A stretch of DNA of 64,000 nucleotides from Hemileia vastatrix (taxonomy: Eukaryota > Basidiomycota > Pucciniomycetes > Pucciniales > Zaghouaniaceae): contig JASXTE010000011.1 of the NCBI GenBank assembly GCA_030280995.1, positions 25,011,817 through 25,075,816 of the forward strand. Direction: 5' to 3'. The position numbers and the translations under genes are program-made. This document shows, piece by piece, positions 27,181 through 58,541 of the stretch. The notes under the pieces are model-generated. The model was not told the origin of the DNA, ran no database searches, and saw only the letters and a list, made by a program, of their open reading frames with translations. Every line of letters begins with the position of its first letter. Positions within the stretch are counted from its first letter, which is position 1.

Positions 27181-27627
27181 GGGGGTATCAATGCTCAGGG
27201 ATCCGCAATTAGGGATCAGGTTTTTTTTTTTTGGGATCAGACATTATTAATTGCAGAAGATTCTTATCCACTAGCCCTGTAGCTAGTGGATAAGGAATTC
27301 ACAATAATGCATTATCCCTCCTCTTATACCCCAATTTCCATTTCTGATTCATGATACCAAACTCATCACATCCATGAGGCATATCCAGAGAGCAGTCCAA
27401 GATGTGGTTATGGCAGAAAGTTGTGCAACATGTGGTTATGACAGAAAGTTTTCCAAGATGTGGTTATGAAAAATTGAGTAGAAAAATGTCAGATAAGAGG
27501 TGAACATTGGCACGTAAAGTGTCTAATAACCCAATTATTAGCAAAAATAATTGCGGAAGATAATTGCGGTATAAGGATTTTTATCCGCAATTAATTTAAT
27601 TGTGGATCAGTCAACATTGATACCCCC
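27181..27627. mobile_element. Harbinger MITE, deletion derivative of 32619-39984
   Basis: 447 bp with ends GGGGGTATCAATG and ACATTGATACCCCC. The 5-bp sequence TAATA is repeated on both sides (27176-27180 and 27628-27632). Its left 200 bp match 32619-32820 and its right 220 bp match about 39790-39984 of the full element, including the subterminal hairpin TTATCCACTAGCC...GGCTAGTGGATAA. Compared with Gypsy-4, the host Gypsy site has the same length once the insert and one TAATA are removed. It has no coding capacity and would need transposase from elsewhere. Confidence 0.92.
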
Positions 27628-31649: not shown

Positions 31650-32618
31650 GGGATGGGGGATGAAAATAAATTATCTCTTGTCATACTTCAGGGATTTAAG
31701 CCAAGTAAAAAATATTAGAAAATAAACTGAAAAAATAATGAAAAAAAACTCATGGTCAACTGTGTTGGTTGGGGAGAAACTTGTGAGCAGGGTAATTGCG
31801 GAATAAGACAGTCAAGAGGCAGAGTGAGAATTGAATTATATGTGATACCTGGAAAAAAGGAAAAAAATGATGAAAAAAATGAGAATGAGAACAAGAATGA
31901 AATGGGGGGAGGAAAAAATCAATTGATGGTGAAATTGGGGCATCTTTGTTGGGAAAATCACATGTCATAAAAAAAAATTGATTGTCATCTAATGTCAGAC
32001 AGTTGCAACTGGGCTGGCCTGTAGTCAGAATGATTTGACAGTACAAAAAAGTGGCAGCCAGGAGAAAAAAGTAGCAATTATTTTTGCAAAATCACCAAGC
32101 TTTGCTGACTTGGCTGTAAGAAATATGGAAACTCATTATTTCTTTTACATTATTCCTGTAGGTTGATATGCTGAGTGTAGGCTTTGATTCATTACATGAA
32201 AATGTCCGGAATCCTTTTACAAATAAAATGAGGCAGTATTTAATAAATATGAACTGCCCTTAAACTGGTCTTTGCCCCTGTTACCTTTTACAAATTAAAT
32301 GAAGCAGTCATTAATAAATATGAACTGCCCTTAAAATGGTATTTGCCGCTGTTTCCTATTTACAATAAACACAATTTTAATAGACATTAATAACATAATT
32401 ATAATTCAAAAAAATCATTAAACCTGACCTAATTATCAGAAATAAATAATATTAGAGTGAGAAAGAAAAGATGGGCAAAAAGGGAAAACATAGCCCGGTA
32501 TATAAATTAGCATCTCACTCAGTATGAATGAGTATGATTGAATAGAAAAAATAGAAGAATGCCACAATAGATGTGACATGTCTATACACATGTAACATTA
32601 AAATCTACTCTTATAATA
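31650..32618. other. A+T-rich stretch, no gene; one tandem duplication
   Basis: No supported gene. 32217-32288 and 32289-32358 are a direct duplication of about 72 bp (TTAATAAATATGAACTGCCC in each copy). Open frames at 31752-32046 on both strands are charged, low-complexity translations of A/G-rich sequence. Confidence 0.55.
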
Positions 32619-32820
32619 GGGGGTATCAATGTTCAGGGATCCGCAATTAGGGATCAGGAATTTTTTTTCCCGGGATCAGACATTATTAATTGCGGAAGAT
32701 TCTTATCCACTAGCCCTGGGGCTAGTGGATAAGGAATCCACGATAATGCATTATCCCGCCTCTTATACCCCAATTTCCATTCCTAATTCCTGATCCCAAA
32801 CTCATCTCATCCATGATGGA
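32619..32820 (+). repeat. Harbinger left terminal region with subterminal hairpin
   Basis: The terminal inverted repeat is followed by a perfect 14-bp stem, TTATCCACTAGCCC/GGGCTAGTGGATAA, at 32703-32732 with a TG loop. The region aligns with 27181-27380 of the MITE. Conservation of the hairpin in both copies suggests a transposase-binding or processing role, which is inferred. Confidence 0.8.
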
Positions 32821-32997
32821 TTTGCAAGAAAGTCACATGACTCATAATTGCTGATGCCATCCTTAAGTCTTTCCTCACTCTATGCTACTTAATTTTGGTG
32901 GCGAACACTTGAGTTTTTTTTCTATCTACACACCCCAACTGCACATTTGGCGGTGAATTCCCACTTCCCTCATCACATAACCCTTCCACCAGCAACA

Positions 32998-34257
32998 ATG
33001 AAACACCTCTCTACTAGACGGCTACTTCACTCCACTATTAATGCCATCACTTTACTTTTAGTTCTTTACTATAAATCTGACTCTGATTTGGAAGATGCTT
33101 TAGCTTATATGTGTTTTCTTTCCAAAAAGTGTTACATCATCACCAGGGGGCCAAATCTTTATCATGATCCCCGATATGATCTGGCCTCCATTCTCAACAT
33201 TCCTCATTTAAACTTCACGCAACTTTTTAGAACTTCTCCCGATTCTTTCTTCAAACTTTATCAACTCATCTCCGATCATCCTATCCTCCATAACAATTCT
33301 CATAACAAACAGCGTAATCCTGCCATCCAACTTGCTGTTGCTCTATGTTGCTTTGGCTCAAATGGAAATGGTGCTGCCGTAAGACGTTTGGATAATCTGT
33401 TTAACATAGGATATGGTACCGTGATATTATACACCAAGCGCTGTATGATTGCTATCCTTTCCCTCAAGTCTCAAACTCTTGCTTGGCCAGCTCCAGAACA
33501 GCGACTTGAATCCTCTCAAGTAATGCAAGCTGAAGGTTTCCCTGGCTGTATAGGTTTTGTTGATGGCACAACCATCTCTTTGAGTCAAAAGCCAGCTCAT
33601 GATGGCAACCATTATTTTGATCGCAAAAAAAGGTTTCTTCAAAATCTTCTCCAAGTTCTCATCTTTCACAATCTAACTTTTTATCTTCTTTCTAGATACT
33701 CTATTGCCGTTCAACTTGTATGCAATGTCAATAAAAAATTTATTACTTTTCACAGTGGCTGCCCTGGATCATGTCATGACTCTTCCGTCTTCCAAAGAAT
33801 GAGGATTTCTCAATCCCCTGAATCATACTTTGACGAATCTCAGTACCTCCTTGCAGACTCAGCATATGCAAGTGGAAAGTACATTATACCTGCTTTCCGT
33901 GGTGCAACTTCAGAAAATGACCCCAAAACTAAATTTAATTATCACCTTGCACAATCAAGAGTACGAATTGAACATGCTATAGGTATTTTAAAGGGACAAT
34001 TTTCTAGTCTTTGGGAGCTCAGAATCCAATTTCAAAAAAAATTGGAGATCAAAACTGCAAATCATTGGATCTTGACTTGCGTAATACTCCACAATATTCT
34101 AGCTGATTTAAAGGATGAGTGGAATGATCTTTATGAAGAAGAGGATCCTGAACCACCACTGGCACTCCCCTCCCTTGATTCACAAATCATTCAATCAACC
34201 GGCATATGCCCCATTATAATGCCAATTACTCTCCAACATTTCTCTTCACCCTTTTAA
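32998..34257 (+). CDS. Harbinger DDE transposase (DDE_Tnp_4 type), one intron
   Basis: Catalyses cut and paste of the element. Start chosen at the first ATG (32998); the frame is open further upstream but without ATG. The intron 33633-33695 (63 nt, GTTTCT...TTTCTAG, CTAAC branch-like site) has no stop and is a multiple of three, so the frame also reads through unspliced. Removing it turns DRKKR into a normal family stretch, DRKKRYSIAVQLVCN. The spliced product is 398 residues. The catalytic triad is visible: D189 in GFVDGT, D266 in LLADSAY, E304 in RVRIEHAIGILKG. GCPGSCHDSSVF matches the family GxPGSxHDSxVF block. The N-terminal part has a helical region (RTSPDSFFKLYQLI) as in other family members. 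It pairs with the Myb-like protein at 38237-39634. Confidence 0.87.
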   Translation: MKHLSTRRLLHSTINAITLLLVLYYKSDSDLEDALAYMCFLSKKCYIITRGPNLYHDPRYDLASILNIPHLNFTQLFRTSPDSFFKLYQLISDHPILHNNSHNKQRNPAIQLAVALCCFGSNGNGAAVRRLDNLFNIGYGTVILYTKRCMIAILSLKSQTLAWPAPEQRLESSQVMQAEGFPGCIGFVDGTTISLSQKPAHDGNHYFDRKKRFLQNLLQVLIFHNLTFYLLSRYSIAVQLVCNVNKKFITFHSGCPGSCHDSSVFQRMRISQSPESYFDESQYLLADSAYASGKYIIPAFRGATSENDPKTKFNYHLAQSRVRIEHAIGILKGQFSSLWELRIQFQKKLEIKTANHWILTCVILHNILADLKDEWNDLYEEEDPEPPLALPSLDSQIIQSTGICPIIMPITLQHFSSPF

Positions 34258-34259
34258 TT

Positions 34260-34604
34260 TTTAATTTTTATGTTTTCATACTTTCCAAATGTCCTCTTTG
34301 TGTACTTTAATCACTTGGTTTTGTATTTTGGTTTGTTGCATATTCATTGTTTTTTGAATTTACGGTGAATATCTTTTTTTTGGATGGCTCATTGGTTTTC
34401 TTTCACTTCCTCAACATGAAATCGCATATTTTCTTATATCGCATATTTTGTCAGTGATTTTTTTTTCATTCATCACTCATATCCTTTTCATCCTCTCCTC
34501 AAACATCCCTCAAATATTTTGGTTGCATTTATTTTCTCAACTCAACTCACCAGGTAGGTCATTTTTTTTCTTTTTTCATGGTTTTTTATTTACTAATCAT
34601 GATT

Positions 34605-34635
<31 letters not shown>

Positions 34636-34789
34636 TGCTTTTTTTTTTTGCTTTTTTTTTGCTTTTTTTGTTTTTTTTGTAAGTGCTTCTATTATTTTTG
34701 TTCTAGGGTAAACTAATTTTTGTTTTGCTTTTTTCTCTTTTTTATCTTTTTATTTTTTTGTTTTTTTTTCTCTCCTTCACCTCTCTTTA
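34260..34789. other. T-rich spacer after the transposase
   Basis: Poly-T runs with GC interruptions (TTTTTTTTTGC repeats, 34602-34680). Phenylalanine-rich open frames here are low-complexity artefacts. An AATTTTTA-type stretch at the start may serve for polyadenylation. Confidence 0.5.
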
Positions 34790-35520
34790 TCATCCTCAAG
34801 GCCCCCCTTTTTCCCTCTCTTTACCTGTCTCTGACCCCCTTTTTACCCCCTTTTTAGCTGCCTCAAATCCCCCCTTTCCCCCCTCTTTAGGTCCCTCATC
34901 ACCCCCCTTCCCCTCTTTTTAGGTGCTTCAATACACCCCCCTTCCCCTCTCTTTATGTCCCTCAAACCCCCCCTTCACCTCTCTTTTGGCGCCTCAAACC
35001 CCCCCCTTCACCTCTCTTTACCCACATCAAACCCCCCCTTTCCCTCTCTTTAGGCGCCTCAAACACCCCCCCTTCCCCCCCTACCCAATCGTTATATCCT
35101 CCTCTACCCCCCCCCCCCCCCTGTTTATTAATGAACGATTTGTAACCATTGTTTGCTAAGTAATCGAATCGTTAGCGATTCGATTACTTAACGAACGATC
35201 GTTATAGATCGTTTGTTAACAAGGAGGTGGGGGGGGGGTGTAGAGAAAGGGGAAAGGGTTTGGGAGGGGGTAAGGAGAGGGGAATGGGGGGGTTCGAGGC
35301 GCCTAAGGTGAGGGGAATGGGGGGTGTTTGAGGCGCCTAAGGTGAGGGGAATGGGGGGGTTTGAGGCAGCTAAAGAGGGGGGAATGGGGGGGGGGGGGGT
35401 TTGAGGCAGCTAAAGAGGGGGGAAGGAGGGTGATGAGGGACCTAAAGAGGGGGGAAAGGGGGGTATTTCAGGGGGATTTTGAGGCAGGCAAGGAGAGCAT
35501 TTGAGGGGGAAAAGGGGACA
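34790..35520. repeat. Long C-rich/G-rich inverted minisatellite with central palindrome
   Basis: The left arm (about 34790-35120) is a run of units like CCCCTCTCTTTAGGCGCCTC. The right arm (about 35222-35520) has the reverse complement, units like GAGGCGCCTAAGGTGAGGGG. The centre carries a perfect inverted repeat, TAAGTAATCGAATCG/CGATTCGATTACTTA, at 35157-35190 with a TTAG loop. G runs of up to 16 (near 35383) make G-quadruplex structure likely. It lies between the transposase and the oxygenase gene. Confidence 0.85.
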
Positions 35521-36139
35521 TTTATGGGAGATAAAGATGGGTTACCAACTTTCAAATAAAGATACTAACAAATTTTTGTTTGTAATTTTGATTATTTTTT
35601 TTATTTTTTTTGCAGTAATATAGAAAAAAAAAAAAATTCTTTCTGATAAGGACTGTCCCTCTTATTTACAAAACAAAAAAGGTTTATAATTTTATTTTTA
35701 TTTTTTCTATAATTAATTTTTGTGATTTTGATTTTATTTAAATAATTTTTTTATTTTTTATTTTGATTTTACTGATTTTTTTTTTTTCATGATCTTGTGA
35801 GAAGGTTTTTAATAACCAATCTTCAGGTTCACTTTTAATTTTTTTTTTAATTTTTTTTTTTGTGATTTAATTCTTACTGAAATTTTCTTTTTTGAATGAA
35901 TTTAATTATTAATTTTTTTTAATAGGATTTTGCTTTGATTGTGTTTTTTAAAATAAAACCTCAGGTTTTTTTTTTATAAATTTTTTTTTTGGAAAATTTT
36001 TTACTGATTTTTTGGTTTTTTTTCAATTTTATTTTTAAAATAAAAAAACAGCTTTTTTTATTTTTAGGTGGGAATATTTTTTAAAAAAAATTTGAGTTAA
36101 AATTTTATTGACAATTAATTTTTTTTTCAGATCAAAAAA
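35521..36139. other. T-rich leader of the oxygenase gene
   Basis: Long T tracts with several TTTTTTTCAG-like 3' splice sites. The last one (near 36120-36130) is 10 nt before the ATG at 36140, so a 5' UTR intron is likely. No open frame. Confidence 0.5.
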
Positions 36140-37389
36140 ATGTGGTCTTCTTCTGATTCACCCCTTACTTCTCTCTTATCTTCATCTTTATCTTCTTTAT
36201 CCTCTTCATCTTTATCATCTCTATCATCTTCTTTGAAATCAACTCTATCATCTTCTTTGAAATCAACTTCCATACAATCATCTTCTAAATCATCAAAAAA
36301 AATTAAAGATAATCAGTCTCATCAGAAGAAAAGATATTTAAAAAAAAAGTCTCTCTGCAAAAGTTATTTTTGTCATATCCCAAACATTTTTTTTTATAAA
36401 ACTAAAGTAGATAAAAAAAATCAATATCCGAAAAAATTACCAGAAGATATCAAATGTCTAACAGAATTTGGAGATGATCGAGTTGTTGCAGTTATCAGCA
36501 ATGCTTTTAAGCCTCAATTCATTTTGGAAGTTCATTCATTCGATGGTGTAAAAGATGAAGCTTTTAATCAACTATCCGATCTTATCATAACTCTTTATCA
36601 AATGGCTTTGTTTTGGTTACCTATAAGGAATAAGAATTTGTTGGGTGGTATCATGATTGGTTTTGGTTGGAGACCTGGTTTTGTCAAAGGATATTCTCTT
36701 GGTATGTCTAATAATTTTTGTTCCATTCTTAATATCATTTCACTTATTTCAATTATATAGGTATATATTCATTGCTCAATAATATCACTAAAGCACAAAA
36801 AGATAAAGATTTTCGCTTATGGGACACTCTACCCTACTTTAATTCTTTTCTTGCTCTTCGACTCAAAAAGCTCTGTAATAAGGCATTTGAAAAAAATCAT
36901 GAACTTGCAACCAAAGTTGGAATACCGAATTGGTGTGACTCCGAATGGGAAGATATCAACCACGAATATCTTTTATTTTCTAATGTTATTATCACTCATT
37001 CTGGATTCCACAATAGGATTCATATTGATAGGAATGATGCCAATTTTCTTACTTTTGGAATATTCTCATATATCAATCCGATAACTGGCCACCCAATACC
37101 ATCTCCAGCTAAAATCAAAAGACATGGTTTATATTTTCCAGACCACCGGTGCATCATTGATTTTGGTTTGGGAAATGGTATCATTGAAACTATTTGGAAT
37201 TCTTCTAAGGATAATCATCAAACGACCAAAGCTCCTCCTGGTTTGGAATCCTGTCAAGATTTCACTCATTTTGGTTGCTCATTTCAAATCAGTAATAAGT
37301 TGATACAAAGAATCAATAAGGTAAAGAAAGAAGGTAAAGTTATTCGATTTAAAAAAACTTTATCTAGATCCAAAAAGTATGGGGATTAG
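36140..37389 (+). CDS. TET/JBP-like 2OG-Fe(II) oxygenase (transposon cargo)
   Basis: Two exons, 36140-36701 and 36761-37389. The 59-nt intron (GTATGT...ATTATATAG) splits a glycine codon and restores KGYSLG to IYSLLNN. Product 396 residues. Residues 1-60 are Ser/Thr/Leu-rich low complexity, then a basic stretch (KKRYLKKKSLCK). From about residue 95 the sequence follows the rust Tet-like oxygenase family: GFGWRPGFVKGYS, HSGFHNRIHIDRNDANFLTF, YFPDHRCIIDF, GNGIIETIWNS, DFTHFGCSFQIS. The iron-binding H-x-D is H275/D277 and a distal His is at 340 (DNHQTT). The family arginine expected near the FTxxG block appears to be His357, which could weaken 2-oxoglutarate binding. By family it would oxidise 5-methylcytosine or a similar base. 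A distant homologue with another substrate remains possible. Confidence 0.72.
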
Positions 37390-37482
37390 AGTTGTCATCA
37401 AAAAATTTATATTTTTTCATAAATTTTTAATAAATATTTTTTATATATCAATTTTCTCAAATAATGTGATGAGCCATCGACC

Positions 37483-37686
37483 TTGTGTTGTATAACAGGT
37501 AATCATGATAACATTTATTTGTTTCATGGGGTTCCTCTTGCCTATACCTGTAAAAAGTCCCAAACTTTTGTTTCTCGACTTGGTCTGCATTTTGACTTGA
37601 GGGATTGTCATTACTTTAAACTAGGGAAATTGATATATATTAGATATTTATTTAATAATTTATGTAATTATATTAAATTTAGATGA
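37483..37686 (+). CDS. Small ORF after the oxygenase gene, unsupported
   Basis: 67 codons, preceded by a possible acceptor (TATAACAG at about 37490). It includes HGVPLAYTCKKSQTFVSRLG and DLRDCHYFKLGK, better mixed than random A+T-rich frames, but nothing is recognised. It could be a downstream exon or a chance frame. Confidence 0.2.
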   Translation: MCCITGNHDNIYLFHGVPLAYTCKKSQTFVSRLGLHFDLRDCHYFKLGKLIYIRYLFNNLCNYIKFR

Positions 37687-38110
37687 CTTCCACCCCTTAC
37701 TTCAATAAAATGCAGGGGGGGGTATTGCCAAATTTTCAAATCTGACATGTGAAATTGATGACTTAGAAAAATTTTGGTGATACCCACCCCTTGCTTCAAT
37801 AAAATGCAGGGGAGAGTATTGCCAATTTTTTAAACAGATATAGAATTTTTTTGACTTGTAAATATTTTTGTGATACCTGTCCCTTACTTCAATAAAATCC
37901 ATGGGGGGTTGTGCCAAAATTTCTTATAAGACTTGTGAAATTCTTGACATGTAAGAATTTTTGGGATACCGGTAAAATGCAGGGGGTAGTAAAGCCAAAT
38001 TTTCATATAAAACTTTCAAGATTCATGACATGAAAGAATTTTTGTGATACCCACCCCTTACTTCAAAAAAATCCAGGGGTGGGGGATTGTCAAATTTTCA
38101 AAGGAGACTT
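37684..38110 (+). repeat. Tandem array, about five units of roughly 95 bp
   Basis: Each unit has ACCCACCCCTTACTTCAATA or a variant, then AAATGCAGGGG, GCCAAATTTTCA, and ends GACATGTAAGAATTTTTGTG. Units begin near 37684, 37782, 37877, 37970 and 38050. It lies between the oxygenase and Myb-like genes, within the 3' flanks of both. Confidence 0.75.
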
Positions 38111-38236
38111 GAAAATTTTATTTAAAAAAGGAATATTTAACATTAAAATACGATATTTCAAGAAATACAGAAAATAATTGTAAAATTTATGTACAAATAA
38201 ATATGAACACATGAAGTGTGAAAGAAATAAAAGAAA

Positions 38237-39634
38237 CTAGTCAACAAAAAATTTCATTAAATGTTCTATTTCTTCAACAGATTTGTTTGCTTTAATGCAT
38301 TCGATCAAGAAATCTTTCTTTTTAGAACTTTCTTGGAGATCATGCTTATACTTCATCTGTTCCATTAAATTTTGATGCTTGAGTGTTTTTTCCTTATTTT
38401 TGGATTTTTCAATACTAAGAGTTAACTCAAACTTCTTCTCCTCCAAATCTTGGGCCCTACCATCCTTCTGTAAAGAGAGCTCAAACTTCTTCTCCTCCAA
38501 ATCTTGGATCCAATCATCCTTCCGTAAGGAGAGCTCATACTTCCTCTCTTCCAAATCTTGTACTCTGTCATCCCTCCTTAAAGAGAGCTCGTATTTCTTA
38601 TTTTCAAAGCTCAGAGTCTCTTTAGCAATTTCCACTTGTTCTAGAGTGAGAATAAAAATTAACATAAAGTAGAAGAAAAGCAGAGTAAAGTAATAAGAGG
38701 TATGATATCACTTACCAGCATCACGTTTCTCTAAAAACTGTTCCATCAAAGAAAAAGGTGTTTGTGATGAAGTATCACTTTTTTGTCTTCTTTGGGAGAG
38801 GAAATTTAGACTAGTTGAAGCCCTTCTCTTTTTGTTCAATGTAGCATTTTCCTCCTCATCATTGTCACTAGCTTCAGACTCAGTTGATTGAGGATCCTGG
38901 GTTTTTTCATCAGCCTTTTAAGAAATAAGAAAAAGATAAGTAAATAAAAAAATAGAATTGATAAGATAAAAGAAACAGACCTGAGTTAGATTTGGTTGGG
39001 TTAAATCACCTATAGGATCTACAGAAAAGCTATTTAGATATGTCTCATTCAAATGAGGGGAGGCTTGAGTTGAGGAAGAGGATGGGAAAAGATTTGCTTC
39101 GACATCATGTTTGGAGATAGGATCTTCTCCATCCAACATGTTTACAGGATTAACATCGGCTCGCTCTCCAAAAATTGCATCCATCTCTTTAAAGTAAGGA
39201 AATAAAGAATCAAGTTTATTGTCTATGGATTTTATACCCTTAGTTATATCAATGTCAGTAACCCCAAAACCAGTGGAAGATGAAAGAGCCTTTGCCTTCT
39301 TGTATTTTGCTCGATAATGCTTGAAGTGTTCAGACATCTGTTTAGGCAAAAGATCAATCCTTCCCTTGGTCTTATTGCGTAATTCATTTGCCATTAGAAG
39401 ATAGCCATTAACTTTTGATGTGGGGGGCCGTCCTACTTTAGTGGCATACTCAGTACCAAAACAAGAATCATAGTTAGATTTGGTTTTCAGCCAGTTGATA
39501 AGAATGAGATGTTCATCTTTTTTTAATTGAACAGTCTTTGATTTCTTGGCTGAGCGGGGGAAAGAGGAAGTAGTGGGAATTGAAGAACAACTGGGTGATG
39601 GCTGCCTTTGAGAAGATCTAGGATGACGAGGCAT
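38237..39634 (-). CDS. Harbinger Myb/SANT-like accessory protein, three exons
   Basis: Minus strand. Exons 39634-38981, 38914-38716 and 38640-38237; phases agree, giving 418 residues. The start at 39634 (MPRHPRSSQR) is preferred over an upstream ATG in a hydrophobic extension. Residues about 35-130 form a Myb/SANT-like DNA-binding domain with WLKTKSNYDSCFGTEYATKV, GRPPTSKVNGYLLMANELRN and MSEHFKHYRAKYKKAK. A disordered acidic middle follows (STESEASDNDEEE). The last exon is a long coiled coil with an 18-residue motif repeated about four times (KKYELSLRKDDWIQDLEE and variants). By family, this protein binds transposase and terminal repeats and helps nuclear import. Splice sites are GTCTGT...AAAAG and GTAAGT...TCTAG. 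Confidence 0.75.
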
Positions 39635-39789
39635 GTTATTATAAATGAAGATGAAAAGGAGCAGAAACAAGCAGATGAGATAGCAAGATGAAAAGGAGAA
39701 GAATCAAATAGATGAAATGGGGAGAAATTCTGAGTGGATAGAATGAACAGGATGGGATGAGAATGGAAGTGCGCAGCAAGGTAGAAGGC

Positions 39790-39984
39790 TGGGATATCCA
39801 GAAAGTTGTCCAAGATGTGGTTATGAAATATTGAGGATTAAAATGTCAGATAAGAGGTGAACATTGACACGTAAAGTGTCTAATAACCCAATTATTAGCA
39901 AAAATAATTGCGGAAGATAATTGGGGTATGCAGATTATTTTCCGCAATTAATTTAATTGCGGATCGGTCAACATTGATACCCCC
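39790..39984 (-). repeat. Harbinger right terminal region
   Basis: Matches the right 220 bp of the MITE at 27181-27627 (GATGTGGTTATGA, GTCAGATAAGAGGTGAACAT, CCGCAATTAATTTAATTGCG) and ends AACATTGATACCCCC. Several differences from the MITE are CpG changes: the MITE has TG or CA where this has CG. Confidence 0.85.
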
Positions 39985-40051
39985 TAATATGGTAATAAAA
40001 ATAGAAAAATAGAAATTCAACAGAAATAGTGACTTGTTCTTACATTCAATG

Positions 40052-40312
40052 CACCACACAATATGGGGGGCAGACTTGCTAGCAAGTCTGCAACCTTGGA
40101 CCCAAACTCACCACATATTGAACACACATTGAGCTATTGATAAAGGAACCATACAATCAGGGATGAACACCACTCAGCAGAACAGCTTTAGGTGGGTGTT
40201 CAAGTAGAGTTCAGTATGGGTTCAGTATGAGTTCAGTCTGAGTTCCATCTGAGTTCCATCTGAGTTCAGGTTGAGGACTTGCTAGCAAGTCCACCCCCTA
40301 TATTGCGTAGTG
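40052..40312. mobile_element. MITE, compact copy of the CACCACA family
   Basis: 261 bp. The left end CACCACACAATATGGGGGG and the right end (CACTACGCAATATAGGGGG on the minus strand) are inverted repeats of about 45 bp, each holding the palindrome GACTTGCTAGCAAGTC. Short direct repeats (GAGTTCAGTATGGGTTCAGT and TCTGAGTTCCA) lie inside. Related copies are at 22230 and 24318-24550. No flanking duplication could be fixed because another element abuts at 40316. Confidence 0.8.
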
Positions 40313-40315
40313 ATA

Positions 40316-40513
40316 GGGGGTATCAAAGTTAGAAATTTGTAATTATTTAAAAGGCATTTCACAACACAAAAAGAAAGCCACAAACTTGACATTAACTCTC
40401 AATAAAAAGGTGTTTAGGGGGCACAATATGTCATATTTAAAAAAATAGTCATGGTTGATTTGGTGGAAAAAAGAGGTATTTTGAAATGAAAGATTTCTAA
40501 CTTTGATACCCCC
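40316..40513. mobile_element. MITE with GGGGGTATCAAAG ends
   Basis: 198 bp with inverted ends GGGGGTATCAAAGTTAGAA and TTCTAACTTTGATACCCCC. The first nine bases equal those of the Harbinger element at 32619, but the inside is different, so it is a separate family, perhaps mobilised by a related transposase. Flanking repeat not clear. Confidence 0.8.
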
Positions 40514-40589
40514 TATTTTAAGCCTTCGCGTACTGCTATATTGGATGTTTGCTATAAGCAGACCAGAAATGAAAAGTGGGAACTTGTTA

Positions 40590-41078
40590 CAGTCAAACCC
40601 GTCAACATTGAGACAAAAATTGAAATTTTTTTGAAAATTTATTGACTACCCAAAAGTTGAGCTGCAGCATTTTTTTGTCATCTTCAATTTATTTTGTGAC
40701 AATTGGGTTGAGTTCTCTGTTGTTTTGATTGTGGTATGGATGCTGGGCTCAATGGATATAATGGATGATTGTTTTCTGTATATCGCTTCACATTAGTATC
40801 GATAGTATTTAGTTTATATACATACTCTAGTTAGGGTTGTACAGCTATTTGGGAAAAGCTTGCTGTGTTTTTGCGTTCCACTCCCCGCCGAAAACATGAG
40901 TTTAAACCGCTTTTGGCGGGGGATGAGGGGCAAAAAAAGAGCAAGGTTTTCCCAAATAGCTGTAGTATTGCGGCATAGGTGAGTAGGTTTTGACAGTTTC
41001 GCCTCTCTACTGTCACAAAAACTGTCAATAAATTTTCAAAAAAAATCATTTTTATCTCAATGTTTACAGGTTTGACTG
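40590..41078. mobile_element. Tc1/mariner-type MITE
   Basis: Inverted ends of about 55 bp, starting CAGTCAAACC and ending GGTTTGACTG, flanked by TA at 40588-40589 and 41079-41080. TA flanks and CAG starts are typical of the Tc1/mariner group. No transposase frame. It contains another MITE at 40840-40964. Confidence 0.8.
40840..40964. mobile_element. Small nested MITE
   Basis: 125 bp including the TA flanks. Inverted ends are TACAGCTATTTGGGAAAA and TTTTCCCAAATAGCTGTA, with a second inner inverted pair (GCTTGCT/AGCAAG). It sits inside 40590-41078, so it is the younger insertion. Confidence 0.8.
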
Positions 41079-41080
41079 TA

Positions 41081-41927
41081 CAGTGGCTGGACAATAATTT
41101 TCACCTGTTTTTTTTCTCATAAAATCCCTAAATAATCACTCGACAGACATGAGCTTGTACATTTCTAAATCATACGACCATGGAGAATAGGACTGTAACA
41201 AAGACACCAATTCGTAGAAAGATTACATTTTTTGAAAAAACATCATTCTTGAAATTGATAACGAGCAAGCTGACAAGTCTGTGCTTTTCCTTAAGGAAAG
41301 GGATGGGGTTGGTATGAGCATTGAGCAAAAAAGATTAGTGAAAAGTGGACAAAATTGACCAAAAAAAGCGTCACCAAGATGTAGCTTCACTGTTTGCTTC
41401 CCTGGCAGCTTGCACCTTTGAAAGCGAAGATGCAATCAAGTTTCCGAAGTATGGTCGGAAAATTCATCCCAAGCCTACTTAAAGGCATTTAACATAGCAG
41501 GAACTGTCATTGGGTGATAAAATTACAAAACCATATTTTTGAGGTGTTTTCATGTGTTTGCAACAAGGCTTGAATGTGATTGGATTGTGCCAGGAGCACA
41601 GTTTGTGTATTAATTAGAATAGTATGTATATGGTCTAACTATTGTGATCTTCATTTCATGGATGAGATGTTGTTTTCAAGCTGAGGACCCTGTCGTAGTT
41701 TGAGTGAAAATCGGTAAAAAAGGTAAATATTGGATAAGAGATTAATGAGTCAGTTTTGCAGGAAATGAGAAAGAAAGGACATATTACCAAAATGTGAAAG
41801 GTAAATCATAAAATTAATATGATCTTAAGGGGTGCGCAGTGATGGTGGTGGTGTTAGGAAGAAGAAAAAAAAAGGCCGATAACCTGGATTACGCATGCAT
41901 CGGGTGATAATTATTGGCTAGGCACTG
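41081..41927. mobile_element. Tc1/mariner-like element remnant
   Basis: 847 bp between TA (41079-41080) and TA (41928-41929). Ends are CAGTGGCTGGACAATAATTT and, on the minus strand, CAGTGCCTAGCCAATAATTA, inverted repeats with a few mismatches. The inside has short frames with mixed content (for example from the ATG near 41180, with KTPIRRKITFFEK) but no intact transposase. It shares its left TA with the element that ends at 41078. Confidence 0.7.
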
Positions 41928-41929
41928 TA

Positions 41930-42992
41930 CAGCCATACTGGAAACGGTGGTGCAGTTTTGTAAAAAATTTCAAAGCCTTAGGACAGATCGATGGACATTT
42001 GACAGGAAATTCAGATTGCATTCACCAAAAATTTGTCACTTTCACTGTCAAATGTCAATCATTCTGTCTAAATGTTTTGGTTTTTTTTTTCGCATAGGTG
42101 CACCAACCATTGTCGATAGGGTCGTAGAAGATGCCAATCCCTATGTTTGAAGAGACTAAGTTTTTACTAGTCTGCAATACATTTTTCAGACCTTGTGCAT
42201 TCTTTTGTAACACTCAGTGCACCAGTTTGAGTGGCTTCAAATTGTGGTTCATTTTAATTAAAAATGAATTTCGGGATAGGAATCTGCTATCAGGTTTAGT
42301 TGTTTTTTTGTGGTGGCGCTGTAGTTAAATAATGTGCGATGTGAAATCTTCATGTCGATATTGTAAATAGACTCTATTGTACCGATAGAGCATAACAAGG
42401 TTTTTTGTTCACACTCTTTGACGATTGATTTGTGACACTTGTACAACTAGATTGTCTGTAAAAACTATATACATATATGGGGGAAAATAACATGGCAAAC
42501 TAAAGACTTTAATTAGATATAAACAGCCCCCACAATAAAGAAAAAATTACCACATTCCACAAAGGAGAATTCCAGTAGTCGATCCATCACCTTAATTTCT
42601 CGGCTCCCTGATCAGCCAAGGCAATAAGTGTTATAAGTGTTAGCAATAGTTGGAACACGCCTTTAAGACGTGTAATCGTGTAAGTTCGGCTCATATTTCT
42701 GCGCAAGCGATTGTCCTCAGACCCCCAGGAAAAGATTAGAGTTGTGTACTGCCACTAATAAAATATCTTCAGCCCTCATCACCTAACTAGCTAACTGCTA
42801 TCACTATTAAAAACTACATCTCTCAACGGGCCTTTTATTGAGTAGGTTGCGGTTGTGTCTGTCATCGTAGCCCATTTTGTTTTATTTCAGCCAGAGAGTA
42901 TTTCACATTTGGATCGGGTCTATTGTGGGTTGAAGCTTTTCATTTAGTGTAAGTGAGTAGTCGCCTCAATAGTGCACTCACTGGTTGTTCTA
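41930..42992. other. Upstream flank of the transporter gene, no gene seen
   Basis: 41990-42056 holds an inverted repeat (GGACATTTGACAG and CTGTCAAATGTCA). 42490-42992 has more balanced base composition than its surroundings and may hold the promoter and 5' UTR of the transporter. No TATA box could be assigned with confidence. Confidence 0.4.
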
Positions 42993-45805
42993 ATGGCTTC
43001 AATTTGCAGGGCGTTTTGTAAAATGAAGGATTTTATCATTGACCCAAAAGTTAGTCGTTGGAGTTTTTAGATTGGGTGGTGATTTTTACTGGCGCCGCTA
43101 ACTGTGCCTCAACTGACAGCTCGAGGCTGCGCTCATCCGCAAACTGGATCTCCATGTCCTCCCTGGTCTTTCGCTGCTATGGCTGGCTTGCTTCAGTGAG
43201 TCTTAAAATATTTTTTACTTCGGATGCTGGCTAAGTGTTTGTTATTCTTTTTAGTTGACAGAACAAACGTTGGAAATGCAAAGGTAACGTTGGCATCATC
43301 GCTTTGTCCTGGCTGGACCCAAAAAAGATAGTGGTTCTGACATTACATGAACGGCTGATGACACTTTCCAGGTAGCTGGCATGGGACGTGACCTTCACCT
43401 TCATGGACTTCAGTTTAATGCCGCCTTAGCTGTCTTGTAAGGTTTGAGGCTTCTATGGCCCAATTTAGATCATTTTGTCATGTAAATTCATATGCTAATA
43501 AACATTTTCACTTATAGCTATGCCCCATACATTGCCAGTGAACTTCCTTCCAATTATCTCCTCAAAAGGCTTGGGGGAAAGGTAGTTCTCGCCGCTACGC
43601 AGCACATAAAAATTGTATCTGAATATATATATATGCTTTACTTTTTTCTACTTTAGATTTGGCTGCCTTTTTTGGTAATATGCTGGGGTTAGTTTTTTAA
43701 TTCTACGTTATTTACTCTGCGATGAAGATACAACAGGGCTAAACCAAGTTATTGTTCTATGAAAACAGGCATAGTGACCATATTTTCTGGTTTTATGAAG
43801 ACTTACACTCATTTAATTATCGTAAGGCTACTTTTGGGTCAGCATAATTTCACGTGTCATCTTAAATTTTGATTTTTTGGGAGGAAACGTTATGACTGAT
43901 TCTTTTTCTCAAACAGGCCTTTTTGAAGGAGGGCTATTGCCAGGAATGGTGAATATTTGAAAATAATCAATTGTTCTTCACGATGGATGCTCATCATATT
44001 TTTTTCAAGGTCTACTACCTTTCAACTCTGTATAACCACAATGAGCTACAACTTCGAGTTGGAATCTTTTACGCGTCGGCTTCACTTAGCGGAGGTTGTT
44101 TCCATGTATATTTTTGTTGCAAACAATTTCTTATATTTGTGTGTTTTAAATGTAGCTTTTGGTGGTCTACTTGCATTTGCAATCGAAAAAATGGATGGTG
44201 TTGCTGAAAAACCAGGCTGGGCGTGAGTTTTTTTTTTTCAATTCTATGTCTGAAATAGAATCATTCTAATCTTGTTACCAAACATAAACCATTTCACAAT
44301 TTATTGAACCCCGTGGTGATTAGCTGGCTTTTCATCATTGGTAATGTTTTTTTAAATCATTCTGTACTCAATGCCTTACTGGTAACTGATAGCCAAAATT
44401 TTCAGAGGGCCTGGCGACAATTTTAATTGCACTTTTTGCTTGGTGGTATATGCCAGCTAGTGTTCATACCGCTAAATTTCTGACTATTGACGAACGTCAA
44501 TTGGCAGGTAAGGATACAAGTTAATGCAAAAAATCTTCATGTTTCTTTAAGCTGAAAATCTTTCAACCTTAGCTCAGCGACTTAAGGTATCAAGGTCTTC
44601 GAATTCGCTATCCGTGACAACTACAAAAGACGGCCAAGGTTATAATTCCACAGTTACATTACCCCAGAGTGAGGTTGCTCACTTCCCTAGGGTAGATTTA
44701 ATTCCAGAAGAAGAAGAATTTGAATGGCGTGAAGTCAGACGAGGGTTCATGGATCCTCAAGTTTGGCTCACAGGATTTGGATATTTGTCGGCGCTTGTAG
44801 GAATGTACTCTTATAGTTTGTTCCTGTGAGTGACCAGCTATGTTTAATTTTGAGAAGTTTTTCATTCATGACGTATTTGTGGGGTGGCGATTCATCTGCA
44901 GGCCAACAAGTAGGTTATATACTTCACCTTATTCTTGGCCTTAATAATTGCGAAATTGACAATAAAACACTTTTTAAGTTATTCAGGGAATGGGCTACCG
45001 TGGCGCACGTGCTCAATTGTTTTCTTCTTTTCCATACCTACCTGCTTCTGTAGTCACTGTGTTTGTTGCATTTGCAGCAGATAAATTGCAGTTAAGAGGG
45101 CCTATAGTTTTGACATTTCTTCCATTAACAATGGTTGGATGTGAGAATTTTTATTTATGAACAGGTCCCCACTGAGAGTCAAATCATGTGATAATTGTTG
45201 ACTCTTTTTCCAAAATATGTTACAGATATCATGGAAATTGCTAGCACCCAACTCAGTACGCGATATGCTGGGGTGTTTTTAATGGCTCTAGGTATTTCCA
45301 TTGATCAGCTAATTCATTGCTGTCATTTTGATCATTGTATTACCGAACCATTCTAGGAGTTTACCCTTCAGTACCTTCGATTCTCTGCATTCTTCCAAAC
45401 AATACCTCTGGCTATACGAAACGGGCTACTGTGACAGCACTACAACTTATGGTTTATATACTCACTTTTCATCTTTTTTATTTTTGAAGTATCTAATATC
45501 GAAATAATTTTTCCTGCTCTCAAAAATTTTGATAGATCGCAAACTGTGCAGGATTTATTGGAACATTTATTTATAGCTCTGATCAAGCACCATTTTATGT
45601 CCGGGGCCACAGTTTGGCGTTAGCATTTACCATTCTAGCATGGGTACTGATTGGGCTTAATTCTCTGTACTGCGCTTATGAAAATAAGCAAAGAAAAGCT
45701 GGAAAACGGGATCATAATATGACTGATTATCAAACTCTTGTGCATAACGGTAAAACTCGCGCTCCTATCGGAGACCGAGATCCATCATTTCTCTTTACAC
45801 TTTGA
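42993..45805 (+). CDS. MFS transporter, allantoate permease/ACS family, 18 exons
   Basis: Plasma-membrane anion:cation symporter of the Dal5/Tna1-like family; the substrate cannot be told. Exons: 42993-43049, 43120-43195, 43255-43283, 43372-43436, 43518-43581, 43657-43687, 43769-43837, 43917-43948, 44010-44094, 44156-44222, 44324-44340, 44406-44507, 44573-44825, 44902-44909, 44979-45140, 45226-45291, 45357-45451, 45536-45805. All introns are GT-AG and all phases agree, giving 515 residues, normal for the family. Motifs: LIRKLDLHVLPG, DRTNVGNAKVAGM, YAPYIASELPSNYLLKR, GIVTIFSGFMKTYTHL, RLLLGLFEGGLLPGM, YASASLSGAFGGLLAFAI, DERQLAAQRL, LPTIIQGMGYRG, NNTSGYTKRATVTALQL. A second in-frame ATG at 43023 would give 505 residues. 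Exon 14 is only 8 nt. It is the only clear host gene here and is surrounded by transposon debris. Confidence 0.9.
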
Positions 45806-47777
45806 ATAACTAGGGAAGAAAAAGGATTAAAACATCCGGTTTAAGAAGTAGATGGAAAGTTATCTAAGCTCCCCAGAGAGTTGCTTGGAATCTACACATA
45901 TGGTGTTGGATCAGAATTGTAACAGAGTAGTTCAATTTTTTAGTGATTTTTTCGTAATATTTTACTCTCCTTGACCTAATGTTTTGAATATAATCAAAAA
46001 AAAATTTGAATATAATAATATTATAACCACAGTGCTCTTCATTTGCCAAATAAAATATGTGCCAGCCTCGTCCTTTTTGGAGCTGATAGGGTCAGGTAAC
46101 TGAAGCAGTTAAGTCACTTCTCAGGTAAGAAAAAGTTATCAGTGATGAATGAGACAGTGAGGCGTATCCTCTCTTATATGAAAATATAATTGCGCTTAAA
46201 TTCTGTATAACTTAAAATCACAATACTTAAATATATAAAATATGTGATGCGCAGAAGTTTATAACCTATCTTATCTATCTAAAAAATATTAACCAAGTAA
46301 GAATATATGTCTCTGACTAATCCAAGTCAAATATATATATAAACAGTAAAATTACTTCTAACCACACTAAAATGTAATATAAGAGTAATTTCTGTAATTT
46401 TAAGACTATCAACCCTTTGAGAGAGAGTTAAACTCGACCCAATGATCACACTAAAAATGAAATACAAAAATATGCTACACAATAGTTAAATTCAGATTCA
46501 GATAAATACAACTCACTTTATATCCAAGAGGTGGCTATTTTCTTACTATAAGTGTTTAAATGATATTGACTCTCATCTCCTCCCCCCCTCCCCCATCATT
46601 CCTCTAGTATCCAACTTTCTTTTTTTTCCTCCGGTAGATTCCCTAATAATCCCATTCTCTCACAGTAGTCACTTTATTAGCCAAATTTCATTGCCCGTTT
46701 CCTACTCACAAATTTTCTCCCTAATTTGTTCATACTCCCTTAGATTAGTATGGTGTCCTTCATGCCCCACGCTGAAAGAGATTGTAAGGATTTCTAAAAA
46801 AAAAAAAAAAATTAGAGAATTAAAAAAATATGCTATTGAATGCTTAAAAAGATGATTTATTTCCATTGAAATGAACTCCTCTTTATAGTAAAATCCTCTT
46901 CTTCCCTTAGCCCATAGTGCTTTAGAGATCTCTAGAGCCACGAACCCTACTATCTGGCTTTCAGACCCCCCCTAAATACAGTATACCAAAAGATGTCCCA
47001 AGTCTGTGGCAGCTGATTTTTCACCAATATTACTCAGGATGATTCGAGTATGAATCTCCCACACCATGTGCTTACAAGATTCTCATCAGTTATATAACAA
47101 ATCTACAGTAACCTAGTAAGAATAAAATTTGAGAGGAGATAGATTGAAGCAAATATTAGATAAAAGAAATGGAGATAAAAAGATGTGAAACAAATGAAAA
47201 AAGATACAAGATATATGGGTAGAACCAGTGAGAAAAGAAATATAGAGAAATCATTTAATTCATTGATACACCAAAAGTTAGATAAATGAAATGTATTCTT
47301 GTATGTAATTTGTCTTGATGTAACCAACACGATACATCTAAAGCGCCATAGATGTCTCAAAACTTATAAGATTTTGTTTAGACTATTGCACAAATAGCTC
47401 AACTAACAACTAAATGAGATAAATGAATATTTATGATAGAAAAGATGATGAGAAGTTTATGAGAAATAAAAATACAAAAAAAAAACAAAAAATAAATCTA
47501 TAAAGGCTCATTAGAAGCGCCAATTTTAGTCTCAAAATGTTCCAGGCATATAGGTGAGATTTCCAGTAGAAAGGGGGAATATCCAACTGTCTTTTAAGGC
47601 CTTCAGTTTTCATGTGTCCTTCATCCAAGTGGGAGCGGTAGAATTAGTTGATTCAATTGGTTCCAGGAGGTCGTCTTGTGACATCCTATTATTCAATTGC
47701 TAGGAGTATATTATCTAAAAGCTTAGTAAAAAATATTTATATTATTGAAAGTATCTTTCACAGGGGGGGAAATCCCC
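45806..47777. other. Gene-free stretch downstream of the transporter
   Basis: Mixed A+T-rich sequence; a C-rich CTCCTCCCCCCCTCCC run lies at about 46576-46592. Small open frames (45864-46049, 46702-46941, 47103-47360, 47431-47628) are hydrophobic or low-complexity with no motif, so none is called. Confidence 0.55.
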
Positions 47778-48109
47778 GAACTAGATTTCTAGCTCAGTTT
47801 TTGGTTGCAGGGTATGACTCTGGGTCTGATTTGGGGAATGACCCGGTTTGATCCCACCTTATTTTTTTTTTGCTTTTCTGACATTGGAATCTCATTGGTT
47901 CATTTCTTCTAATCTTCATAGATTCATCTGAAGATTCTATTTGCACCTCCTCTTCCCTTCCCTTAACAAGCATATCCACACCACACCACCTTAATCCTCT
48001 TCCAAAGGCAAAAAAAAATGTGGGCTCAAAAAGTCACATTCAATGGTTTGTCACAAAAATGCACCTAGGAATGGAATAGGGTCACAAAACTGAACTAGAT
48101 ATCTAGTTC
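47778..48109. mobile_element. Possible MITE with self-complementary ends
   Basis: The left end GAACTAGATTTCTAGCTCAG and the right end (minus strand) GAACTAGATATCTAGTTCAG form inverted repeats of about 25 bp. The right end also lies in the perfect 20-bp palindrome TGAACTAGATATCTAGTTCA (48091-48110). Inside is coding-free. The target duplication is not clear. Confidence 0.45.
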
Positions 48110-51100
48110 ACCATTTTTTATCCCTGATTTTACTTTAAAAAATTTAATTTATTTGGACATAAACTTTGCAATCAGGTTCATCCAATTAATGGTTTTTAGG
48201 ATTAAATTTTTTCAATAATATTTATCTATTTTGCTTATATCTAGATTTTTATCTTTTAGTAATCTTCTATGATTTTTATATTATTCTTTATTTTAAACTA
48301 TTTGTCTTAATTTGTCCCAATATTGTTTGTTGGAAGTCCAAATAAATCTTCCAGCTAAAAATATGAGAAAAATTTTAAACAAAATGGAAAGAACATTTTT
48401 CAATTTGAAATGTTTCTTATTGGCCGGTTTGTCTAGAAGAAGATAATGAAGAGGAGAAAAGGAATAGAAAGGAGAAGAAGGGGAAATGTAGATTCAAAAT
48501 AAGAGAAAAGACATGAGGACTTAAAGGTGAAATGAAGATGATATAGGAGAGTTTATAGGACTTTTGAAAATGGTTAAAAGGTATTATAACAGTAAGTACT
48601 TTTATCACTCACTGTGTAAATATCAATTACTAATAATTAAAACACTCTCAATGCAACCTTTAAATATTTATTTAACAGTTAAGGGAACAGACACGCTTAA
48701 ACAGTAAAATTGTAAGCCTGGATATCCACAGGACTGAGTAAAAAGTACTTATAAGTTATGTTAAACACATGGAATATACATGGGAGCAATAAATTAAAGT
48801 ACACAAATAGTATACATAAGTAAATTTATGATAAAATACAAAATATGCCATTATAACACCTTATGTACACGCATATATCCACCTTTTATAAGTCTTATGT
48901 ACTTAATATTAAGTTGAAATATGTTAGAGTAATCTTAAGAGCCTTAAATATAAGGCTATATAATTTTTAAGTAGACTCAAAGCTGTTGTTTTCATTATTT
49001 TATGTGAAAAACAAGAAATGTGCTTTAAATCACTTAAAAGTTGACTATATGCACTATAAATTTAATAATATTAAAAATGCACTTTGACAGATCAACTTGT
49101 CTTAATTAGGGCTATTTATCTAGCTACTCAAATGCATAAAAATAACAATTTTTAAAATTTGGTGTTTTTTATGCCAGAAATGGCTTCTGTGTACTGGCCA
49201 CATACTGCCTGCATTTTTCCCATGTGAATAGCTTCATTTTTAGTAAATTTAGCTTTTTCACACTATAATTACCCCACATTCTACTCTCACTGTGGGGAAA
49301 CACACTAAAATAGGCAACAGGTGCTCATTAAGTGTCCTAGTTTAATTATAAATGCATTGACCCTTATTATATGCACTAATTTCATTAATAAACACAAGCT
49401 TGGCACTTTAATTTACTACAATGCTTAAATTTGCCTAAATTAGTCAAGGATTTACCCAAGCAAGTGCCTTCCAAGGACTGCATGTAGTTACCCCACATCT
49501 CACACCCTTTTTTGGGTTTTTAAGTGGTTTCTCAGTCAATTTTGGTTATTTTTGAATGAGGATTTCACGTAGTATAATGTCATGATTAGCTCGATCATTT
49601 CTACTTTTAATCCTCCTTCATATGGGGTAATAATTAGTATTAATTTTCCCTTTTTAGTATTTTATTTTAATGTATTACACGCATATACTCTCTTTTTTTC
49701 TTATTCTTTATTTTGGATGGATTATCCCTATTACTGCAGGATTTTGGAAGGTGATATCATTCTAATTATGTTAATGGTCACTATTTATGTTGTTGAACAT
49801 GTCTATTAGTTGAAATGAGGTGTCATTAACCATGTATAGAGCTGGTAAATCAAGGGGTTCATTGGGGAAGTTATTGGGTATAAAAGGAGGGGGTTTTTGG
49901 TCTTTTTTTCTACATTCTTTATCATTACAATCAAACATATAACCAGTACAATTACAATACATATCAATAGCACTTATAAAGTCTTTGAATAGTATCTGAA
50001 TTATTAAATCTATTTTTCTACCAACTATAAGATTGTAAGCCATATATAATTAGTGAGATTTAAAATACTGAGACCCTTATATTTGAGTTATATTTTAATA
50101 CTTATTGGATTTGTACTACATTATTCATATAGGACCATAAAATCTTATAGACAACTGAATAATCAAGCTAGTTCACATCTTTGTACTTGATCTCAGCCTG
50201 AAAAAAATAGTTAATAATATTTAAAATATGTTACAGTAAAGTAAGTGATCAGAGCCAAAATGGATTACCCAAGGCCCTTTTATAGGCACGGGGTCCTGTG
50301 AAGCACCAAAAAATTGTAAGTACAAAATGATAATAGAATGAAATGAGAAAATGAAAGAATAATAATGAAACCTGGATATTGAGAGAAAAACATGAAACAT
50401 ATAATTAAATCCTCAAATAAGAAATAATTTTCCCATAACAAAGTCCCAATACTAGTTAATTAAAATAGTGAGTACCTATGTAAATTTTTAACAGTGGAAA
50501 CAGTGAGTAATTTATCCAAAATATTCATTACAATGAGACTTAAAATGGTTTTAATTGAACCAATACATTTATGTCATTTTGACACAAACTTTAATGTAAT
50601 CAATTCAACCCAAAACAGAAATTAATAAATAGTTTTAAATATTTCATTTAAGTAATAACTAATTTAAGTGAAAACAAGTAATTACTTTTTAGTGAATTAC
50701 TAATTCAAAATAAGTATTTTAATTTATTTTGTTAAGTAAGTTTCTTAATTTATTAAATAAATTTTCTGACACAATTAAGGGTCAAAAAGTGACCAATATT
50801 TATGGATTATAATGTATGAGAAAGTTTATTTAATATATAAATTTAATTAATTAAATTTTAATTATATTATGATTCAATTACACAAATGTAATTATAATAT
50901 ATGATAATAATCAATTAATCATTAATTTATTATTATTAAATACATTAAAATGAGCCATGATTTATAGAATATAATATATATTATGTTTGATGTAAGTGTA
51001 TAAATAATTTATTTAATAATAAAATTAATATAATATTTATTTTACTTATTTTTAATAAAATTTTATTATGTAATAAAATATTATTTTAACTACATAAAAT

Positions 51101-58455: not shown

Positions 58456-58541
58456 ATAGTTTTTTTTTTCTTTTATAAAGCAAAAATAAAACTGATTCAT
58501 CTGATTGTTTCTTTCCCTCACTTCAGGTTAGATTTAAAACA

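What the first reader, a model, noticed from the sequence alone, without database searches (positions are those of the whole stretch)
36140..37389. TET/JBP-like oxygenase gene inside a PIF/Harbinger transposon
Seen: a two-exon gene with H-x-D (H275/D277), a distal His and rust Tet-like motifs lies between the transposase and Myb-like genes of an element whose two ends match and carry the same TAATA flank. Known: in basidiomycetes TET/JBP genes are reported in association with KDZ (Kyakuja-Dileera-Zisupton) transposons. Inference: here a different superfamily carries one, perhaps to remove methylation from element DNA and so permit excision or expression.
Basis: partly seen in the sequence, partly recalled or inferred. 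Interest (0 to 1): 0.9.

Follow-up and report, generated by a model that had tools for sequence, protein, structure and literature searches.

The report
Rust-fungus transposon carrying TET-like oxygenase

Summary
A 7,366-bp element (32619-39984) with matching ends carries a DDE_Tnp_4 transposase, a two-exon gene whose product matches Pfam PF20515 'Tet-like 2OG-Fe(II) oxygenase' (E 4.1e-36; H275, D277, H340), and a third, convergent gene. No terminal repeats above chance bracket the oxygenase, and a 447-bp deletion derivative lies nearby. So the oxygenase is most likely cargo of a PIF/Harbinger-type transposon. The 'Myb-like' label of the third gene is a weak, non-significant lead.

This is not new in kind.

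Two details stay open. Both family members in the window are flanked by TAATA repeats, where PHISTA is described with TA. And none of three oxygenases compared has an arginine between the distal His and the end of the next strand, where TET2, NgTET1 and CcTET keep a co-substrate arginine; the co-substrate is therefore uncertain. Other genomic copies could not be checked: the genome search did not answer any of 16 requests.

The parts
32619..39984 (.). whole element, 7,366 bp, between the two terminal inverted repeats
32614..32618 (.). left flank TAATA (candidate target-site duplication; TA is the minimal reading)
39985..39989 (.). right flank TAATA
32619..32649 (+). left terminal inverted repeat GGGGGTATCAATGTT..., 28 of 31 bases matching the right end
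39954..39984 (-). right terminal inverted repeat
32998..34257 (+). transposase gene, 398 aa after removal of an inferred in-frame 63-bp intron (33633-33695); acidic DDE candidates in FVDG, LADSAY, RIEHA (motif roles recalled)
   Evidence: DDE_Tnp_4 E 5.7e-25; DDE_Tnp_1 5e-07; Plant_tran 7.9e-05
34774..35463 (.). C-rich then G-rich foldback of 32-33-bp tandem units between transposase and oxygenase genes; function unknown
36140..36701 (+). TET-like oxygenase gene, exon 1 (Ser-rich N-terminus, first part of the PF20515 domain)
36702..36760 (+). intron of the oxygenase gene (59 bp)
36761..37389 (+). TET-like oxygenase gene, exon 2, with H275 (37021), D277 (37027), H340 (37216), H357 (37267)
37690..37970 (.). 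93-bp tandem repeats (3.0 copies by TRF; further diverged copies to about 38083) between the convergent oxygenase and third genes
38237..39634 (-). third gene, three exons inferred by hand (39634-38981, 38914-38716, 38640-38237), about 418 aa; weak resemblance to Myb/SANT, C-terminal charged repeats
27181..27627 (+). 447-bp non-autonomous derivative of the same family: arms 91% (of 198) and 92% (of 186) identical to the element's two ends, also flanked by TAATA

Best explanation
This is a full-length DNA transposon of the PIF/Harbinger group with open reading frames (most likely the rust-specific TET+ 'PHISTA' type) that carries a TET/JBP-like Fe(II) dioxygenase as cargo. The transposase cuts and pastes the element and probably also mobilises short deletion derivatives such as 27181-27627. 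The oxygenase most likely oxidises 5-methylcytosine on the element's DNA, so that the element is less silenced by CpG methylation and perhaps loses fewer CpGs to deamination. Shown here: anatomy, protein families, iron-binding motif, no detectable separate transposon around the gene, and the deletion derivative. Inferred: source organism, mobility, enzymatic activity, role in escape from silencing.
For: PF20515 E 4.1e-36 and DDE_Tnp_4 E 5.7e-25. Matching ends and flanks. No bracketing inverted repeats: best score 14 against a null median of 13, 95% at 16. Deletion derivative with 91-92% identical arms. HxD, a distal HxT and THFGCSFQI in 3 of 3 proteins compared: window, P0002 (P. striiformis), P0003. 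Asp at HxD+3 in the window and P0003, at +2 in P0002; in CMD1 the Asp at +3 (Asp350) contacts N4 of 5mC, and CMD1 also has Thr two after its distal His (His397, Thr399). Window CpG o/e 0.20, element 0.35. Window GC 33.7% against 33.8% reported for A. psidii, where transposons are hypermethylated at CpG. Kojima 2025 describes such elements.
Against: No expression, activity or methylation data. The host species is inferred from composition and homology only; no search returned a protein named as A. psidii. No Arg lies between the distal His and the end of the following strand in 3 of 3 proteins, where TET2 Arg1896, NgTET1 Arg289 and the essential CcTET Arg385 lie, so standard TET chemistry is not assured. 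Structure prediction failed (mean pLDDT 36.6) and no relevant PDB sequence match was found. CpG retention in the element is not exceptional: 9 of 85 overlapping same-sized windows outside it are as high or higher.
Confidence: 0.72

Rival explanations
1. The oxygenase gene is a separate insertion (its own element, or a retrocopied or host gene) that landed by chance in this one Harbinger copy.
For: Low-complexity foldback and tandem-repeat DNA flanks the gene on both sides; the deletion derivative in the window lacks the whole interior and so says nothing about it; GC3 of the oxygenase (0.239) is lower than that of the transposase (0.326).
Against: No bracketing inverted repeats above chance, and direct repeats scored no higher (best 14, no null of their own); the gene has an intron, so it is not a simple retrocopy; Harbinger elements with a TET gene are reported from six rust species.
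Confidence: 0.1
2. The oxygenase is a decayed or inactive passenger with no current role for the element.
For: No close copies were available to measure selection; no co-substrate arginine is seen after the distal His.
Against: Intact reading frame across an intron and complete iron-binding motif in the window; the same motifs in P0002 and P0003 at 35-41% identity, which argues for long-term constraint on the family.
Confidence: 0.12
3. The enzyme is a TET homologue with other chemistry (another co-substrate, as CMD1 uses vitamin C, or another base), writing a mark rather than removing 5mC.
For: No Arg from the distal His to the end of THFGCSFQI and a conserved His on that strand in 3 of 3. 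The corresponding Arg is called strictly conserved in TET2 and NgTET1, and in CcTET (Arg385) its loss abolishes activity. In CMD1 the aligned Arg410 points away, and the authors suggest that this and Trp358 explain why 2OG is not used. Kojima 2025 lists CMD1 among the nearest solved relatives and does not exclude other activities.
Against: 2OG-binding residues are not universal across the wider oxygenase superfamily; Lys at +4 (window) or +10 and +13 (P0002) from the distal His could substitute, though P0003 has none; three sequences only, and the strand register is inferred without a reliable structure.
Confidence: 0.15

Closest known systems
TET+ PHISTA (Harbinger) transposons of Pucciniales, Kojima 2025, PMC12730594
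   Same: Harbinger-type DDE transposase, TET/JBP gene, a third protein without a significant Myb/SANT match, probably a rust host, flanks compatible with TA
   Different: The two family members in the window repeat five bases (TAATA), not just TA; whether this is the A. psidii family of that paper is untested because its supplement and figures were not readable
Canonical PIF/Harbinger and Nuwa elements
   Same: DDE transposase plus a second protein, short inverted repeats
   Different: Here no 3-bp duplication, an extra oxygenase gene, and only a weak Myb/SANT signal
TET+ KDZ elements (Dileera, Zisupton, Kyakuja)
   Same: Transposon-borne TET/JBP gene
   Different: Transposase family and flank length differ: DDE_Tnp_4 here, and 7-8-bp duplications are described for KDZ in Kojima 2025
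Algal CMD1 (TET homologue, vitamin C co-substrate), PMC7854593
   Same: HxD...HxT motif and, in the window and P0003, Asp at HxD+3

Membership tests
PHISTA (TET+ Harbinger of rusts) | Harbinger/IS5-type DDE transposase | tested here: met
   DDE_Tnp_4 E 5.7e-25; acidic candidates in FVDG, LADSAY, RIEHA
PHISTA (TET+ Harbinger of rusts) | TA target-site duplication | tested here: inconclusive
   Flanks end and begin with TA, but TAATA repeats at 2 of 2 family members; 28 of 5464 TA sites in the window would give a 5-bp repeat by chance
PHISTA (TET+ Harbinger of rusts) | TET/JBP gene inside the element | tested here: met
   PF20515 E 4.1e-36 at 36140-37389, between the ends
PHISTA (TET+ Harbinger of rusts) | third protein without Myb/SANT domain | tested here: inconclusive
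   Myb_DNA-bind_4 E 0.053-0.11 for exon 1 or parts, none for the whole protein, 0.29 for its relative P0005; all below cut-off
PHISTA (TET+ Harbinger of rusts) | transposase falls in the PHISTA clade | not tested
PHISTA (TET+ Harbinger of rusts) | host in Pucciniales | tested here: inconclusive
   GC 33.7% and CpG depletion match A. psidii; oxygenase homologue in P. striiformis; no direct species assignment
Canonical PIF/Harbinger | 3-bp target-site duplication | tested here: not met
   The three bases next to the ends are ATA (left) and TAA (right)
TET/JBP dioxygenase | HxD...H iron triad in a TET-like domain | tested here: met
   H275, D277, H340; PF20515
TET/JBP dioxygenase | co-substrate arginine after the distal His (TET2 Arg1896, NgTET1 Arg289, CcTET Arg385) | tested here: inconclusive
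   No Arg between residues 318 and 370 of the window protein and none from the distal His to the end of THFGCSFQI in 3 of 3; but the structural position is inferred, not modelled. Bears on mechanism more than on homology
TET/JBP dioxygenase | double-stranded beta-helix fold | tested here: inconclusive
   AlphaFold model of P0002 has pLDDT 36.6; not used
TET/JBP dioxygenase | oxidation of 5mC | not testable with these tools
   no activity data
KDZ transposon | KDZ transposase and 7-8-bp duplications | tested here: not met
   transposase matches DDE_Tnp_4; flanks TA/TAATA

The most novel reading that the evidence does not exclude
The rust transposon-borne TET homologues do not use 2-oxoglutarate in the standard way: the co-substrate arginine that TET2, NgTET1 and CcTET share is gone and a conserved His stands near its place, so the transposon may write an unusual cytosine mark or use another co-substrate, as algal CMD1 does, instead of erasing 5mC. 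The element may in addition be a Harbinger variant with a symmetric 5-bp (TAWTA) target duplication.
Probability: 0.12. Interest if true: 0.6.

Novelty: already known. Interest (0 to 1): 0.25.

Why it matters
Transposons that carry a DNA-demethylation-type enzyme would show selfish DNA fighting host silencing with the host's own kind of chemistry. That case was made for rusts, with Harbinger elements included, in 2025. What this copy adds is a clean full-length example beside its own deletion derivative in a CpG-depleted stretch, and a concrete question about the enzyme's co-substrate and the element's target duplication.

Tried and rejected
Nested insertion around the oxygenase: searched 34258-36139 against 37390-38236 for inverted and direct repeats (exact 8-base seeds, so very diverged repeats could be missed); nothing above chance for inverted repeats.

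Fold comparison: two predictions failed (third protein exon 1 alone, pLDDT 40.1; P0002 with three further rows, pLDDT 36.6), so no fold search was run. PDB sequence searches gave no relevant match: none, L-threonine aldolases at E 0.97 and 2.7, centrosomin and cytochrome c6 at E 0.28-0.79.

Weak Pfam rows set aside: for the third gene's last ORF NT-C2 (E 0.0015, below cut-off), SH3_1 and NAD_Gly3P_dh_N; for an 88-aa piece DUF3438 (E 0.23).

Viral contigs: transposase exon 2 and oxygenase exon 2 matched 2 and 6 pattern stretches, none confirmed as relatives. Rfam (gathering thresholds) and tRNA scans of the window: nothing.

Protein searches: 3 of 3 used, each giving one hit. In one search only the 7989 candidates sharing most words were scored, probably swamped by the Ser-rich N-terminus, so few hits do not mean few relatives. 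The transposase was not searched this way.

CpG protection by the oxygenase as an explanation of CpG retention in the element: dropped, since 9 of 85 control windows are as high or higher (the eight listed highest all start at 40001-43501) and element age confounds it.

Reading that section showed the opposite: Arg385 is conserved and essential. I therefore raised the other-chemistry rival from 0.12 to 0.15 and the novel case from 0.10 to 0.12, and lowered the best explanation from 0.75 to 0.72.

Full report
Observation. The element runs from 32619 to 39984 (7,366 bp). Its ends match at 28 of 31 bases and both are flanked by TAATA. Inside are a transposase gene (32998-34257, plus strand), the oxygenase gene (36140-37389, plus strand) and a third gene (39634-38237, minus strand). 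The transposase matches DDE_Tnp_4 (E 5.7e-25) and has an inferred 63-bp in-frame intron. The oxygenase product of 396 aa matches PF20515, 'Tet-like 2OG-Fe(II) oxygenase superfamily', with E 4.1e-36 and 125.4 bits against a cut-off of 27. The intron 36702-36760 has GT and AG borders, and the spliced product aligns to a Puccinia striiformis protein (P0002, 137 of 396 columns identical, 35%) with no gap at the junction. tblastn of the three proteins finds no second copy in the window.

The third gene. Exon 1 or parts of it give Myb_DNA-bind_4 at E 0.053-0.11, below the cut-off, and the whole spliced protein gives nothing. A relative from an unnamed ENA contig (P0005, 60% identity) gives the same family alone at E 0.29. 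That two sequences point to the same family is suggestive but not significant. The single-sequence model was unusable.

Is the oxygenase cargo or a nested insertion? Between the transposase and third genes no pair of inverted repeats brackets the oxygenase above chance: best score 14, null median 13, 95% at 16, from 100 first-order Markov sequences of one side. Direct repeats scored no higher (best 14) and were AT-rich; they had no null of their own. The gene is flanked by a C/G-rich foldback (34774-35463) and by 93-bp tandem repeats (from 37690); neither looks to me like the end of another element. The element has a relative in the window, a 447-bp deletion derivative at 27181-27627 whose arms are 91% (of 198) and 92% (of 186) identical to its ends. 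It lacks all three genes and so cannot tell when the oxygenase came in. The decisive check, other full-length copies, was impossible because the genome search did not answer any of 16 requests.

Target duplication. Both family members are flanked by TAATA on both sides, with different sequence beyond. If the true duplication were TA, a 5-bp match would be expected at 28 of 5464 TA sites in the window (0.5%), so two in a row suggests a 5-bp duplication or a strong site preference. A different small element with similar ends (40316-40513, GGGGGTATCAAAGTT) shows only TA. Two insertions are too few to decide.

Enzyme. The iron-binding candidates are H275, D277 and H340. HxD, a distal HxT and a following THFGCSFQI are present in 3 of 3 proteins compared: window, P0002, P0003. 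The CMD1 paper (PMC7854593, passages) gives His345, Asp347 and His397 as iron ligands, Thr399 (two after the distal His) as needed for activity, and Asp350 (three after the HxD Asp) as contacting N4 of 5mC. The window and P0003 have Asp at +3, and P0002 at +2. The same paper calls TET2 Arg1896 and NgTET1 Arg289, which hold one carboxylate of the 2OG analogue, strictly conserved. The CcTET paper (PMC11040006, section 'Cofactors' recognition' read) says Arg385, nine after the distal His376, is highly conserved and essential. In the three proteins here no Arg lies from the distal His to the end of THFGCSFQI; the window has one Lys at +4, P0002 has Lys at +10 and +13, and P0003 has neither Arg nor Lys in the stretch printed; a His on that strand (357 in the window) is conserved in all three. 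Upstream Arg178 is shared with P0002 (P0003 shows no such motif) and could be the other co-substrate arginine; that is inference. So the iron site looks complete, cytosine recognition is plausible, and the co-substrate is uncertain. The register of the strand is my inference; no reliable model was obtained.

Setting. The window has GC 33.7% and CpG o/e 0.20; the element is at 0.35 and three stretches that I labelled Gypsy-like at 0.02-0.18 (reverse transcriptase or protease confirmed by Pfam for two of them). Passages of two A. psidii genome papers (PMC8063080, PMC12774611) report GC 33.8%, CpG depletion attributed to deamination of methylated CpG, and hypermethylated transposons. I therefore think the window comes from A. 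psidii or a close relative (about 0.8), but no call identifies it. In the aligned arms, the deletion derivative keeps 4 of 10 CpGs of the element, and 5 of the 6 lost are TG or CA there; of its own 5 CpGs, 4 are shared with the element. That is the direction expected of methylated copies, on small numbers. The element's own CpG content is not exceptional (9 of 85 overlapping control windows as high or higher).

Comparison with print. Kojima 2025 (PMC12730594; abstract, introduction, sections 3.1.4 and 3.4, part 1 of 2 of the discussion, the figure-legend section and passages read) describes fifteen TET+ Harbinger families with TA duplications from six rusts including A. psidii, names the Puccinia lineage PHISTA, says the third proteins lack a Myb/SANT domain, and proposes escape from methylation-based silencing. 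My other literature searches showed no further title on TET genes in Harbinger elements; they were listings only, 20 of 1,137 papers, 9 of 9, 20 of 24 and 1 of 1, the same paper. The element here fits that description except for the open duplication question; family identity is untested. The 2014 PNAS paper on TET/JBP expansions (recalled) is not held.

Verdict. A correct and careful observation of something already published in kind. Interest is low to moderate, and rests on the co-substrate question and the clean anatomy.

Noticed in passing
27181-27627: Deletion derivative (MITE-like) of the same transposon family, 91-92% identical arms, TAATA flanks, CpGs partly changed to TG/CA.
   Followed up: yes
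40316-40513: Another small inverted-repeat element with ends GGGGGTATCAAAGTT and TA flanks, 198 bp, related ends but different interior.
   Followed up: partly
40052-40312: Inverted repeat of 45-nt arms (84% complementary) lying between the two elements, possibly a further small element.
   Followed up: no
34774-35463: Large C-rich/G-rich foldback of 32-33-bp units inside the transposon; transcription through it would give a long hairpin.
   Followed up: partly
40001-50900: The 7.4-kb windows starting at 40001-43501 have the highest CpG content listed (o/e up to 0.56). ORFs at 43.9-45.8 kb look by eye like exons of a membrane transporter; Pfam on three single ORFs did not confirm it.
   Followed up: partly
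53938-55683, 58479-63343: LTR-retrotransposon protein remains: aspartyl protease (E 4e-06) in the first; reverse transcriptase (E 4.7e-32) and RNase H in the second, which is nearly devoid of CpG (o/e 0.02).
   Followed up: partly
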